A DNA stretch of 5,138 bases, from positions 1 through 5,138 of the forward strand of contig NZ_JAQIVI010000316.1 in NCBI RefSeq assembly GCF_028618695.1, given 5' to 3'. This document shows positions 1,700-5,138 of this stretch, piece after piece; position 1 is the stretch's first letter; each line of letters starts with the position of its first letter. The DNA comes from Natrinema soli. Lineage in GTDB: Archaea; Halobacteriota; Halobacteria; Halobacteriales; Natrialbaceae. The notes beneath the pieces were generated by a model. The model searched no databases, had not been told where the DNA came from, and saw only the letters and a list, made by a program, of their open reading frames with translations. Made by a program: the position numbers and the translations under genes.

Positions 1700-3511
1700 A
1701 TGTACAGTTACGTGACGTTCGCGGTTCTGTTATCGGCGATCGTCGGCATAAGCGTCGCCGTCTGGTTGCTCGTCCGGAACGAGTCGAGTCGACCGGCCTT
1801 CGCGTTCGGCCTGTTCATGCTCACGATGGCAGTCTGGTCGGCTACCCACGTCGGAGCTCTCATGTCAGAAACGGTGCGATGGCAACTGCGGTTCACCCAA
1901 CTCTCGTACGTGAGCGTGGTCTTCGCGCCGGTCACCTGGCTCGTATTCTCTCTTCGATACACCGACCGAAGCGGATGGGGTTCCGGGCGACGCATCGCGT
2001 TGCTCTCAGTCGTTCCCGTACTAACGCTCGGATTCGTCTTCACCGCACGGCATCACTCGCTGTTTTACAGTTCGATTTCGCTCGCCGAGGTCGGCGGCCG
2101 GCCGTTCCTCGAGACCGAGCCCGGCCCGTGGCACGTCGTCAACGTCGCCTACTCGTATACGCTGTTACTGATCGGGACGGCGCTGCTGGTCAATGCGGCG
2201 CTCACGAACAACCGGCTCTACAGACGCCAATCCGCCGTCCTTCTGACGTGTACGCTCACACCGTGGCTCGTTAACGGTGCCTACCACATCGGTGTCAGGC
2301 CGATCCCCGAAATCGATCCGACGCCGCTCGCGTTCACGCTCGTCGGGATCCCGCTTGCGGCCCTCGTCTTGCGGACGGACCTGACGACGTTCGTGCCGAT
2401 CGCACACGAGCGCGTGTTCCGAACGCTCGACGATCCCGTTCTCGTGATCAGCCCGAACGATCGGATCCTCGAGGCCAACGCCAGCGCACAATCGGTCCTC
2501 GGCGCGGATCGGCCGCTCGAGGGAGTGGCTGCCGAAGCCGTCCTTCCCGCTGAACTCTCCGACGGTGAAACGTTTCACCTCCCCCTCGAGGCCACCGTTT
2601 CGTGCTCGATTCCGGTCGACGGCGAGACGCGGCGGTTCCTCGCGCAGTGTCGAGCCATCGATCCGGAGCGAGCGGCCGGCTCTCGAGGGGCTATCGTCTC
2701 GCTGACCGATGTCACCGTGCACCTGAACCAGCGGGACGCACTTGCGACCAAGAACGACGCGCTCGAGACGCAGACGGCGAAACTGGAGCTGAAAAACGAA
2801 CAGCTCGAACGGCTCGCGAGCGTCGTCTCCCACGATCTCGCGACCCCGCTGACCACCGGCGAGAGCCTGTTGCAACTCGTTCGCGCGGACCTCGAGGGGG
2901 CAAATCCGGAACTCGAACAGTTGCTCGACGAGCTCGAAACGGTCCACGACCGCCTCCGGGAGTTCTCGGCGGCGCTCCCCGAACTCGCCAGGGAGAGCAC
3001 CGACGTCGAATCGCCCATCGAGTGCGACCTCGAGACCGTCGCCGAGGCCGCGTGGAACGTCGTGGACACCCACGATCTCACCCTCGTCGTCGAATCGACG
3101 CGCACGGTGAGAGCCGATCCGCGTCGGCTCCAGCAGGCGTTCGAGAACCTGTTTCAGAACTGTGTGGAGCACGGCTCCGCGAGCAGTCAGCGCGGAGAAT
3201 CCGCAACGGGGAACGGCGTGACGACGGTCCGCGTCGGGACGCTCGAGGCGGACGATCCTCCCCGGGCGACCGCGAGACCGGACACCGCGAGCCCGCTGCC
3301 CGACCGAGTCGGCTTCTACGTCGAAGACGACGGACCGGGGATTCCGTTCGAGCGTCGGGAGTACGTCCTCCGTTTCGGCGTCAGTACCGGCTCCGGTTCC
3401 GGATACGGACTCGCGATCGTCCGCACGATCGTCGAAGCCCACGGCTGGTCGCTCGCCGTCGTCGATTCATCACAGGGTGGCGCGCGGTTCGAGGTGCTCG
3501 ATGTCGAGTGA
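1700..3511 (+). CDS. 7TM-PAS sensor histidine kinase
   Basis: A complete 603-residue membrane histidine kinase. Seven hydrophobic segments lie at about 5-25, 33-55, 63-85, 98-116, 145-168, 178-198 and 207-224, with a GPW motif (142-144) before helix 5, as in the N-terminal 7TM sensor family of archaeal kinases. A PAS domain follows (about 236-341; LDDPVLVISPNDRILEANASA at its start, SLTDVT at its end), then a short coiled coil (343-372). The phospho-acceptor is H378 in SVVSHDLATPL. The ATPase domain has the N box (N487 in ENLFQNCVEHG), the G1 box DDGPG (543-547) and the G2 box GSGSGYGL (564-571). It should sense a signal in or near the membrane and pass phosphate to a response regulator, but none is encoded nearby. 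The ATG at 1700 has GGGAG just before it and opens the first helix; an upstream TTG at 1661 is less likely. A loop of roughly 40 residues (493-534) after the N box is long and low in complexity. Confidence 0.94.
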   Translation: MYSYVTFAVLLSAIVGISVAVWLLVRNESSRPAFAFGLFMLTMAVWSATHVGALMSETVRWQLRFTQLSYVSVVFAPVTWLVFSLRYTDRSGWGSGRRIALLSVVPVLTLGFVFTARHHSLFYSSISLAEVGGRPFLETEPGPWHVVNVAYSYTLLLIGTALLVNAALTNNRLYRRQSAVLLTCTLTPWLVNGAYHIGVRPIPEIDPTPLAFTLVGIPLAALVLRTDLTTFVPIAHERVFRTLDDPVLVISPNDRILEANASAQSVLGADRPLEGVAAEAVLPAELSDGETFHLPLEATVSCSIPVDGETRRFLAQCRAIDPERAAGSRGAIVSLTDVTVHLNQRDALATKNDALETQTAKLELKNEQLERLASVVSHDLATPLTTGESLLQLVRADLEGANPELEQLLDELETVHDRLREFSAALPELARESTDVESPIECDLETVAEAAWNVVDTHDLTLVVESTRTVRADPRRLQQAFENLFQNCVEHGSASSQRGESATGNGVTTVRVGTLEADDPPRATARPDTASPLPDRVGFYVEDDGPGIPFERREYVLRFGVSTGSGSGYGLAIVRTIVEAHGWSLAVVDSSQGGARFEVLDVE

Positions 3512-3607
3512 GCGATCCGACGCTGTTCGAGGAACTGCTCGTCGGCCCTCCACAAAACGGAGACTCGCATGACCGTGTATCACACAAGCGGCGAGGCGTC
3601 GTCTGTT

Positions 3608-3686
3608 CTAGTACCACTGAACCGATGTACAGACTGATCGCAACGCGATCGCGCGATCAGGTCTGCAAGCATTCAGTGGCGACTAG
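3608..3686. other. Long imperfect inverted repeat (79 nt): terminator or small structured RNA
   Basis: Three stems stack into one long hairpin: CTAGT (3608-3612) with ACTAG (3682-3686); CCACTGAA (3614-3621) with TTCAGTGG (3672-3679); and CAGACTGATCGC (3630-3641) with GCGATCA (3653-3659) plus GTCTG (3661-3665), interrupted only by one bulged G. The loop is 11 nt and the internal loops are small and similar in size. It begins 97 nt after the kinase stop codon, so it may end or protect the kinase transcript. No T-run follows, which archaeal terminators usually have. It could also be a stand-alone RNA or the remains of a small inverted-repeat element. The pairing is clear; the role is inferred. 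Confidence 0.55.
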
Positions 3687-3889
3687 AGTACTCGATCGTC
3701 GTTCAAATTGATAGACACCGTCGCGCGATGAGCTGGTACCGGTCAGCTGTGGTTCTCGTTCGCAGTGAGACGTGACGAGACTGACAGAGCAGAGCGATAA
3801 CGGACGAGACGGCGTCGCTTCAGCCGGAGAATCGACGGCGTAGCGGCAGCCCGTTGCGTTCGGTCCGCGGCTACGCCCGCTCGAGCGAT

Positions 3890-3915
3890 TCGATATAGCG
3901 ATATAAGATATATCT
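3890..3915. promoter_or_regulatory. AT-rich TATA-like cluster
   Basis: A run of GATATA, GATATAA and the palindrome AGATATATCT (3906-3915 region) stands out in otherwise GC-rich DNA and resembles a TATA element readable on either strand. There is no gene downstream in either direction, so if it is a promoter it would drive a non-coding RNA. Weak evidence. Confidence 0.25.
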
Positions 3916-3974
3916 CCGTGAGATCGGGCTGACGCGAGGATCGGTGCAACACAGCTCGAAACGCATCTGAGCAG

Positions 3975-4017
3975 CCGATCGACGCGTGATTCGTAACCGA
4001 ATCCCAGTCGCAATCGG
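3975..4017. other. Stem-loop of about 15 base pairs
   Basis: CCGAT (3975-3979) pairs with ATCGG (4013-4017), CGAC (3980-3983) with GTCG (4007-4010) leaving a two-base bulge, and GATTCG (3988-3993) with CGAATC (3998-4003) around a TAAC loop. It lies 60 nt after the AT-rich cluster at 3890-3915, where a transcript starting on the + strand would run through it. Role unknown. Confidence 0.4.
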
Positions 4018-4149
4018 GCGTACCGACCGGTGGGGAGTCTGCCCAACGAGAATCAGTGACCGAGCTCCAGAACTGCCCGTTACACGGAACGAGCGCCGTC
4101 CGTTGAGTGCCGATTTCACGCTGAACCAGTTCGTCGTTTGCGGCAGAGA

Positions 4150-4212
4150 GCGATCGGTCACTGCCTCCTCCCGACGGGAGCATTCACGGGAGTCGGATTC
4201 TCGACCGGTCGC
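4150..4212. other. Stem-loop with a 10-bp base
   Basis: GCGATCGGTC (4150-4159) pairs with GACCGGTCGC (4203-4212) with one G-U pair. Inside, CTCCC (4168-4172) pairs with GGGAG (4176-4180) around a 3-nt loop. No gene overlaps it convincingly. Role unknown. Confidence 0.35.
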
Positions 4213-4304
4213 ATGGGTCGGGTTCGAAAGCGACGGTCTCAGCGCTGATCGACTCGAGAGGGTGGCCTGTGGGCAGCCATGCGGACCCGTACGAGCAGTC
4301 AAAA

Positions 4305-4366
4305 ACGGGGGTAATCGGTCTCGGTCGGCACTATCGCAGGGTCGACCGAGAGTCCGCACGCCCCGT
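4305..4366. other. Nested stem-loop, perfect 6-bp and 9-bp arms
   Basis: ACGGGG (4305-4310) pairs with CCCCGT (4361-4366), and inside it TCTCGGTCG (4319-4327) pairs perfectly with CGACCGAGA (4343-4351) around a 15-nt loop. The two joining segments are 8 and 9 nt, so the stems can stack as one rod. An A5 run precedes it on the + strand, which reads as a T5 run just after the hairpin on the - strand: hairpin-plus-T geometry for a transcript running leftward, although no - strand gene lies upstream of it. Confidence 0.4.
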
Positions 4367-4558
4367 CATCGTGCATACGCGTTCGACGCGAGACACATTC
4401 TGCGGTGCGCGTTGAGGTGGCGCGATCCCGCCGGCGATAGCAGGATCCGCGTCGAGAGGCGCCTATCACACGTTCCGACCGCTAGCGATCGACGACACTC
4501 GAGATTAACACGGCCACCAGTTCGCCTCGTGTGGACAGCGAAGCACGGACGGATCGTC

Positions 4559-4577
4559 TCCGAGTCGTCGACTCGGA
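4559..4577. other. Short perfect hairpin
   Basis: TCCGAGTC (4559-4566) pairs with GACTCGGA (4570-4577) around a 3-nt loop. It is a compact 8-bp palindrome that could be a protein-binding site or part of an RNA. Nothing else points to a function. Confidence 0.3.
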
Positions 4578-4748
4578 TCGAGGGTGAAACGGAGTACAGT
4601 CCGGTTTGGTCGATGGAGCGCCGATGAACGATCACGGAGTGACGAGAACGCGGCTGGCTACGGTAACCGGTGAATCTCTTCACATCGACCGCGATGGGAA
4701 CGAGTTCAGCGTCGGGAGGACGGCTTCTTCGCGCAGTTCTGCACTGAC

Positions 4749-4780
4749 AGTTAAAAGGTGAACGCCATAGTGCTATATCG
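4749..4780 (+). promoter_or_regulatory. Candidate upstream TATA-like sites
   Basis: AGTTAAAAGG (4749-4758) and GCTATATCG (4772-4780) look like haloarchaeal TATA elements on the + strand. They could be extra promoters for the downstream gene, giving a leader of 190-220 nt that includes the operator and the long stem. They are weaker candidates than the box at 4849-4856. Confidence 0.22.
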
Positions 4781-4848
4781 AATAGGGAGGGGCTCTCAAA
4801 CGGCGGCCCACAGTGGCGGACGAGGGGAACGTCGAAACTCCGGTGGGC

Positions 4849-4856
4849 TTATTATG
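4849..4856 (+). promoter_or_regulatory. TATA-like box of the right-end gene
   Basis: TTATTATG is the most AT-rich octamer in the upstream region of the gene at 4995. Usual archaeal spacing places the transcript start near 4877-4881, immediately after the palindrome at 4858-4873. A protein bound there would sit where the polymerase must load. Positional inference, no start-site data. Confidence 0.5.
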
Positions 4857-4857
4857 T

Positions 4858-4873
4858 TTTAGGCCAGCCTAAA
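4858..4873. promoter_or_regulatory. Perfect 16-bp palindrome resembling a DtxR/IdeR-family iron box
   Basis: TTTAGGC and GCCTAAA are perfect inverted repeats with a CA spacer. The core TTAGGCCAGCCTAA agrees at 12 of 14 positions with the first 14 bases of the classical DtxR/IdeR consensus, TTAGGTTAGCCTAACCTAA. Haloarchaea have several DtxR-family metal-dependent regulators (SirR, Idr1, Idr2) that control iron uptake and storage. Lying between the TATA-like box and the expected transcript start, it should repress when metal is bound, although these proteins can also activate. The palindrome is seen directly; the regulator and the metal are inferred. Confidence 0.65.
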
Positions 4874-4882
4874 TGATGACGC

Positions 4883-4981
4883 GTCCGTCTGCGATACCGC
4901 GGATACGAACCGTCCGGCGGCGACTGCTCGGCCATCGAGCGCACCGGTTCGTAAACAGAGATCCGCAGTCCCGCGACGGAC
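4883..4981 (+). promoter_or_regulatory. Long interrupted stem filling the predicted 5' leader (regulatory leader or small RNA)
   Basis: Paired arms follow in nested order: GTCCGTC (4883-4889) with GACGGAC (4975-4981); GCG (4891-4893) with CGC (4972-4974); a 5x5 internal loop; GCGGA (4899-4903) with TCCGC (4962-4966); TACGAACCG (4904-4912) with CGGTTCGTA (4945-4953), with an 8-nt bulge on the 3' side; and GCTCG (4926-4930) with CGAGC (4936-4940) around a GCCAT loop. That is 29 base pairs in 99 nt, all Watson-Crick. The stem starts a few bases after the expected transcript start and ends four bases before the GGAGG site. It could control access to that site, act as a metabolite- or metal-sensing leader, or be a small RNA made from the metal-regulated promoter. 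I recognise no known riboswitch class in it. Confidence 0.5.
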
Positions 4982-4985
4982 CAGT

Positions 4986-4990
4986 GGAGG
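4986..4990 (+). promoter_or_regulatory. Shine-Dalgarno site of the right-end gene
   Basis: GGAGG, a full match to the 16S rRNA tail, lies four bases before the ATG at 4995. It fixes the start, and indicates a transcript with a leader, not a leaderless one. Confidence 0.7.
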
Positions 4991-4994
4991 AACC

Positions 4995-5138
4995 ATGGTC
5001 GGAACGACACTCAGAGAGATTCGCCAGCACATCGAACGACTGGCCAGCGACGACGGAGCGTACTACGTCGTCTGCGCCCGCTCCGGCGAACGGCCCGTCC
5101 CGGTCGCCGGCCAGCGGTTCGCGACCCGCCCGGACGCG
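4995..5138 (+). CDS. Conserved haloarchaeal protein of unknown function, N-terminal part
   Basis: The first 48 codons of a gene that runs off the window. The protein starts MVGTTLREIRQHIERLAS, an amphipathic helix, then DDGAYYVVCARSGERPVPVAGQRF, a likely strand-turn-strand unit, then ATRPDA. From memory this pattern (LREIR.HIE.LAS..GAYY.VCARTG.RPVPV.G.RF) belongs to small haloarchaea-specific proteins named only as domains of unknown function (DUF7551/DUF7552-type); I am not certain of the number. No signal peptide or membrane segment is visible, so it is probably cytoplasmic. The start is supported by GGAGG at 4986-4990. The upstream DtxR-like palindrome and long leader stem suggest control by metal status, possibly also at the RNA level. 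Function unknown. Confidence 0.8.
   Translation, partial: MVGTTLREIRQHIERLASDDGAYYVVCARSGERPVPVAGQRFATRPDA

What the first reader, a model, noticed from the sequence alone, without database searches (positions are those of the whole stretch)
4883..4981. A whole 5' leader that folds into one long stem just before the ribosome binding site
Five nested arms (7, 3, 5, 9 and 5 bp, all Watson-Crick) account for 29 pairs in 99 nt, beginning a few bases after the expected transcript start and ending four bases before GGAGG. Haloarchaeal mRNAs mostly have no or short leaders, so a fully folded leader of about 115 nt is unusual. It may be an undescribed archaeal cis-regulatory RNA, or a small RNA that ends before or at the downstream gene. 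The 13-nt purine- and C-rich side loop (4913-4925) and the 8-nt bulge (4954-4961) would be natural ligand or protein contact points.
Basis: partly seen in the sequence, partly recalled or inferred. Interest (0 to 1): 0.72.

Follow-up and report, generated by a model that had tools for sequence, protein, structure and literature searches.

The report
Folded leader on an iron-box gene
A salt-loving archaeon and its relatives carry, between an iron-type control site and an uncharacterised gene, a roughly 120-base RNA leader that folds into a long hairpin; the fold is probably real and selected, but nothing shows yet that it senses anything.

Summary
The hairpin is there as described: 29 Watson-Crick pairs at 4883-4981, four bases before GGAGG. 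Alone it is modestly unusual (1 of 200 shuffles as good for the chosen 99 nt, 13 of 200 for the whole leader). Relatives make the case. The gene at 4995 encodes a DUF7552-DUF7551-type protein. In its Natrinema/Haloterrigena/Halopiger clade 27 of 33 orthologues have 86-141 nt between a DtxR-type palindrome and the start codon and 6 have 23-27 nt; of 35 outer relatives 13 start 1 nt after it. Long leaders fold better than shuffles (mean z -1.67; upstream controls -0.23), and sister-species substitutions spare stability more than in upstream DNA (9 of 9 pairs, paired p 0.003). Exact pairs are not conserved: the closest relative breaks 4 of 29 uncompensated, and clades differ in the 3' partner of a recurrent 5' arm. 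The proposed ligand loops are not conserved. Best reading: a fast-evolving 5'-terminal hairpin tuning translation or lifetime of an iron-box mRNA, without specifically hiding the ribosome-binding site. New member of a known kind (structured 5' leader); function untested.

The parts
4849..4857 (+). TATA-like promoter element (CTTATTATG)
   Evidence: recurs in most relatives; haloarchaeal TATA motif TTWT as given in PMC4983044
4857..4874 (+). DtxR/IdeR-type palindrome TTTTAGGCCAGCCTAAAT (operator-like box; the family name of the motif is recalled)
   Evidence: core TTAGG-N4-CCTAAA invariant in 13 of 13 aligned sequences; TTTAGG-N4-CCTAAA at 9, 15 and 20 sites in three Natrinema genomes against 0 for the reversed control
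4883..4889 (+). outer 5' arm (7 bp); holds the CCGTC anchor that recurs at a near-constant distance from the box
4975..4981 (+). outer 3' arm, pairs with 4883-4889
   Evidence: 7 of 7 pairs intact in closest relative L032
4891..4893 (+). second arm (3 bp) with 4972-4974
   Evidence: 1 of 3 pairs broken in L032
4899..4903 (+). third arm (5 bp) with 4962-4966
   Evidence: intact in L032
4904..4912 (+). fourth arm (9 bp) with 4945-4953
   Evidence: 3 of 9 pairs broken without compensation in L032
4926..4930 (+). apical arm (5 bp) with 4936-4940
   Evidence: intact in L032; in the centroid, not in the minimum-energy structure
4986..4990 (+). Shine-Dalgarno-like GGAGG
   Evidence: sequence; an SD-like purine run found near the start in 26 of 28 long leaders
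4995..5138 (+). start of a DUF7552-type protein gene, cut by the window end
   Evidence: PF24422 E 3.5e-19; the N. versiforme orthologue has PF24422 and PF24420

Best explanation
The 99 bases are the body of a roughly 120-nt 5' untranslated leader of a gene that is probably controlled by a DtxR-family metal regulator. The transcript begins a few bases before the outer arm and folds at once into one long, rapidly evolving hairpin. The hairpin takes up most of the leader and leaves the ribosome-binding site about as accessible as in relatives that lack it. Most likely it sets the output of the mRNA in cis, by lowering translation relative to a leaderless arrangement and/or by protecting the 5' end from 5'-to-3' decay. 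Shown by computation: the leader, its fold and its recurrence. Inferred: the transcript start, the metal regulation and the effect on expression.
For: 27 of 33 clade members have 86-141 nt between box and start. 29 long leaders: mean z -1.67, 16 of 29 with p<0.1, against -0.23 and 3 of 29 for upstream controls; three coding segments -0.31, 0.12, 0.20. 97-nt window centred on the leader: mean z -1.58 over 9 clades. Nine sister pairs: mean z -1.52, 9 of 9 negative, p 8e-5; upstream control -0.49, 7 of 9, p 0.07; leader lower than control in 9 of 9, paired t p 0.003 (which mends an alignment slip). Leader more conserved than upstream intergenic DNA in 16 of 16 long-leader pairs. A 5' anchor (CGGTC/CCGTC/CGGAC) lies in the first 24 nt of 24 of 28 leaders against 34 of 246 upstream windows; that arm pairs with the 3' half of the leader with probability 0.45 or more in 24 of 28. 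Predicted openness of the SD averages about 0.48 in 26 long leaders and 0.47 in 6 short ones (my means). Precedent: stabilising a 5'-UTR stem-loop abolished, and destabilising it raised, translation in Hfx. volcanii (PMC2636863, passages).
Against: Covariation is weak: 0 compensated and 4 broken of 29 pairs in the closest relative. Pairs kept exceeded random placement at p<0.05 in only 4 of 30 ordered comparisons. In two other clades 97% of cells are paired with one two-sided change each, not beyond shuffles except the paired percentage in one (21 of 500). RNAalifold finds no consensus over 28 leaders, and its covariation term is unfavourable in 5 of 10 subsets. The window's own sister pair is not significant alone (p 0.21 and 0.08), and only 7 of 18 ordered leader tests are. 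Long-range pairing is a weaker signal: p<0.1 in 45% of leaders but also in 28% of upstream controls. The leader is less conserved than fourfold sites of the gene in 11 of 16 pairs. In 4 of 28 leaders the 5' arm pairs with the 3' half at under 0.3. Six of 33 clade members do without the leader. No RNA or expression data.
Confidence: 0.5

Rival explanations
1. The leader is a spacer with no role for its fold; GC-rich DNA folds anyway.
For: Whole-leader z in the window only -1.35; arms break without compensation; leader absent in 6 of 33; less conserved than fourfold sites in 11 of 16 pairs.
Against: Matched upstream controls show much less of it; leader more conserved than upstream DNA in 16 of 16 pairs.
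Confidence: 0.22
2. A ligand- or metal-sensing RNA (riboswitch-like) with the side loop and bulge as contact points.
For: Long folded leader behind a metal-type box; no Rfam match, so not excluded by known families.
Against: No conserved loop or consensus across clades; loop and bulge change in the closest relative; the SD is not systematically hidden.
Confidence: 0.08
3. The dyad acts as DNA, as a binding site or cruciform, not as RNA.
For: It directly follows an operator-like palindrome; a 5' anchor recurs at a near-constant distance from it.
Against: The anchor's partner differs between clades and lies at varying spacing, near the start codon, which suits RNA folding better than a protein site.
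Confidence: 0.1
4. A separate small RNA ends before or at the gene.
For: Compact hairpin of about 100 nt behind its own promoter.
Against: No U-run follows the hairpin in the sequence; SD and start codon follow directly.
Confidence: 0.07

Closest known systems
Structured 5'-UTR of the hp transcript studied in Haloferax volcanii (PMC2636863, passages)
   Same: a haloarchaeal 5'-UTR stem-loop whose stability controls translation
   Different: the hp loop is given as -7.4 kcal/mol; this hairpin is predicted at about -45; no function shown here
5'-terminal protective hairpins such as that of E. coli ompA (recalled)
   Same: a stem at the very 5' end with the ribosome site left open
   Different: bacterial; tested there for mRNA lifetime, untested here
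DtxR-box genes of Natrinema with the start codon next to the box
   Same: same promoter-box layout
   Different: start codon 3-5 nt after the box (8 of 26 rows); here a folded leader lies in between. Nine of the 26 rows have 71-200 nt, so other long leaders in this set are not excluded

Membership tests
Any Rfam 15 family | score above the family's gathering threshold | tested here: not met
   no hit in the leader even at E up to 5; the one hit in the window, at 2070-2155, is below its threshold
Riboswitch | conserved aptamer sequence and structure across homologues | tested here: not met
   no consensus over 28 leaders; loops change
Riboswitch | ligand binding changes expression | not testable with these tools
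   needs bench work
Structured 5' leader (general kind) | located between promoter and start codon | tested here: met
   transcript start itself not measured
Structured 5' leader (general kind) | fold stronger than controls and kept in relatives | tested here: met
   for the group of leaders; modest for the window alone
Structured 5' leader (general kind) | compensatory base changes in the arms | tested here: inconclusive
   0 in the closest relative; one each in two other clades
Intrinsic terminator / attenuator | hairpin followed by U-run | tested here: not met
   the sequence after 4981 is CAGTGGAGG
DtxR-type regulated gene | palindromic box at the promoter | tested here: met
   motif assignment recalled
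DtxR-type regulated gene | regulator binds and expression follows metal supply | not testable with these tools
   needs bench work

The most novel reading that the evidence does not exclude
A lineage-specific cis-acting RNA of haloarchaea, gained between a metal-regulator box and a formerly leaderless start, in which a recurrent 5' anchor is repeatedly matched by a newly evolved 3' partner: selection on being folded, not on a given set of pairs, adding a second, post-transcriptional layer to iron control.
Probability: 0.2. Interest if true: 0.65.

Novelty: new member of a known kind. Interest (0 to 1): 0.42.

Why it matters
Haloarchaeal mRNAs are mostly leaderless and structured leaders are described as not typical (PMC4983044). 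A leader that stays folded over a clade while its sequence turns over, and that is missing in a few members with the promoter kept, offers natural with/without pairs for testing what 5' structure does to archaeal mRNA. The gene itself is uncharacterised: no paper in the library names DUF7551, DUF7552 or DUF7260.

Tried and rejected
Dispersed repeat or mobile element: among 29 genus genomes 8 had a match at E<=0.01; only that in G075, the orthologous leader, is strong (2e-34); the other 7 genomes gave short hits, best E 7e-4. The 5' anchor next to a box elsewhere: a strict pattern that covers only the CGGTCYCCG form gave 18 hits in 125 genomes, 11 of them at this same gene by coordinates and 7 scattered, with 4 hits of the reversed control. 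One alignment of the 28 long leaders: RNAalifold found no consensus. A clue from the protein: AlphaFold2 model of low confidence (mean pLDDT 60.6, 11 sequences), no PDB match with E<=0.001. uORF: the ATG at 4873 lies in the box end or before the likely start; 3 of the 27 other long leaders have an ATG at that place. Alignments A4 and A5 took the wrong strand of minus-strand loci and were discarded; repeated correctly. Searches aligned the window with L032 without a 1-nt gap (too many differences); one search repeats the sister test with proper alignment and supersedes (there: leaders -1.5, 9 of 9; control -0.47, 8 of 9, p 0.04).

Limits: clades a, b, e and c, d, g, h appear to share ancestry, so the nine groups are not independent. 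The anchor motif was chosen after seeing the sequences, and the pairing figure there has no shuffled control. The shuffles in the sister test keep base-specific substitutions but not dinucleotides. The ORF calling is mechanical; I fetched 8 of 9 box sites of G075 and 14 of 15 of G002 (all but this gene's own), and 10 of 20 of G004; 9 of the 26 rows have box-to-start distances of 71-200 nt, some probably wrong ORFs, so the long leader is not proven unique among box genes. My notebook entry calls these genes 'mostly leaderless transport lipoproteins'; that is too strong. The SD scan took the first SD-like match within 18 nt; 2 of 28 long leaders had none. Box-to-start distances need an exact TTAGG-N4-CCTAA within 260 nt; 14 of 68 tree rows had none.

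Full report
What is there. The window is from a Natrinema-like haloarchaeon (inferred from its closest relatives; no genome is held for it). At 4857-4874 lies a DtxR-type palindrome, directly preceded by a TATA-like element. The leader follows, then GGAGG at 4986-4990, then the start at 4995 of a protein with a DUF7552 domain, cut by the window end. Fold energy of the 99 nt is -45.7 kcal/mol, z -2.93. With the rest of the leader z falls to -1.35 and 13 of 200 shuffles do as well. One sequence alone would not carry the claim.

Relatives. A scan of genome contigs gave 12 loci. A search of 125 genomes of the family of N. versiforme (G002) found 68 with an orthologue at E<=1e-40. I extracted the upstream DNA of 69 loci plus the window and built a tree of 68 proteins; Halorussus (L025, start codon 1 nt after the box) and the cut window protein were left out. 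Distances are counted from the end of CCTAA to the start codon. Of the other 35 rows, 13 have 1 nt, 1 has 4 nt, 3 have 23 nt, 2 have 83 nt, one each has 111 and 205 nt, and 14 have no exact box in the counted stretch. So starting right after the box is common outside the clade, and the long leader looks like a gain at or near its base followed by one or two losses (inference; the inner forks are weakly supported and the 205-nt row, L071, sits on a long branch next to the clade).

Is it more than chance? For 29 long leaders (28 including the window, plus L054 from outside the clade), trimmed of the first 5 and last 14 nt, the mean z was -1.67 and 16 of 29 had p<0.1. Same-length upstream segments gave -0.23 and 3 of 29; three coding segments gave -0.31, 0.12 and 0.20. 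Long-range pairs averaged 9.3 against 4.8 in shuffles, but this measure is less clean: p<0.1 in 45% of leaders and in 28% of upstream controls. A sliding profile over 28 leaders in 9 clades has its deepest minimum (-2.04) over the promoter and palindromic boxes, as expected, and a separate one centred on the leader (-1.58; -0.83 and -0.37 when shifted by 20 nt). When the substitutions seen between sister species are placed at random, the leader becomes less stable than the real sister in 9 of 9 pairs (mean z -1.52, p 8e-5). The upstream control shows a weaker bias of the same sign (-0.49, 7 of 9, p 0.07); the leader is below its control in 9 of 9 (paired t p 0.003). Single tests are mostly weak: 7 of 18 ordered leader tests and 2 of 18 controls have p<0.05, and the window's own pair has p 0.21 and 0.08. 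In 16 of 16 long-leader pairs the leader is more conserved than the DNA upstream of the promoter, but in 11 of 16 less than fourfold sites of the gene.

What is conserved and what is not. Specific pairs are not. The closest relative, L032 (89% identical over the leader), breaks 4 of the 29 pairs, 3 of them in the 9-bp arm, and none is compensated; of the 37 pairs of the window's minimum-energy leader fold, 5 break. Over 30 ordered sister comparisons the number of pairs kept beat random placement at p<0.05 in 4. In two other clades 97% of cells stay paired, with mostly one-sided G-C/G-U changes and one two-sided change each; shuffles are exceeded only for the paired percentage in clade g (21 of 500 reach it). 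What recurs is a 5' anchor, CGGTC, CCGTC or CGGAC, within the first 24 nt in 24 of 28 leaders, against 34 of 246 upstream windows; the motif was chosen after looking. It pairs with the 3' half of the leader at 0.45 or more in 24 of 28, with the partner's centre 20-52 nt before the ATG in 23 of these 24 (58 nt in L053), but at places that differ between clades.

Regulation. The palindrome TTTAGG-N4-CCTAAA occurs 9, 15 and 20 times in three Natrinema genomes; the reversed control 0 times. Of 26 box-gene rows from the sites that I fetched (32 of 44), 8 have the start codon 3-5 nt after the box. Of seven box genes scanned, two gave solute-binding families (PF01497; SBP_bac types), one an ABC ATPase, one DUF5059, one an HVO_A0261-type regulator and two glycosyl-transfer or RGP families, so uptake genes are among them but not alone. 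PMC11349517 (passages) names the SirR/DtxR-family regulators Idr1 and Idr2 of Halobacterium as involved in iron homeostasis, and Idr, SirR and TroR of Hfx. volcanii as potential regulators. That this gene answers to iron is inference.

How it most likely works. A stable stem at the 5' end that leaves the SD about as open as in short leaders (means about 0.48 in 26 long and 0.47 in 6 short) does not look like a simple on/off mask of the ribosome site. Lowered or tuned translation, as shown for a much weaker stem in Hfx. volcanii (PMC2636863, passages), or protection of the 5' end from exonucleases (recalled for bacteria) are the likeliest roles. Which one is open.

Novelty. No Rfam family matches the leader and no paper in the library names the protein domains. 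The literature searches were about haloarchaeal leaders, archaeal riboswitches, iron regulators and the domain names, in open-licence papers only; none of the listed titles or abstracts describes this leader, which is not proof that it is undescribed. It is a new member of a known kind, structured 5' leaders, and unusual for its host group.

Noticed in passing
window 3549-4840: About 1.3 kb between the histidine kinase gene and the promoter without a convincing gene: five ORFs there have no Pfam match at E<=0.1, yet L032 keeps 3802-4407 at 83% and 4408-5138 at 86% identity.
   Followed up: partly
window 1709-3511: A 7TM-PAS-histidine kinase gene (PF16927, HATPase) sits between the PHP-domain gene and the DUF7552 gene; blastn of the window found it in none of the 11 loci among L001-L012 that hold enough upstream DNA, and its end in L032, whose locus stops there. 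It looks like an insertion in this lineage.
   Followed up: partly
upstream regions of the 33 clade members; window 4800-4874: 28 of 33 clade members have a second exact DtxR-type box upstream of the TATA element; L031, L034 and L040 have degenerate ones, and I see none in L032, L033 and the window.
   Followed up: no
L002:6930-7730: The next gene after DUF7552-DUF7551 in N. versiforme is a DUF7260 protein whose start overlaps it by 4 bases, so the leader may serve an operon.
   Followed up: no
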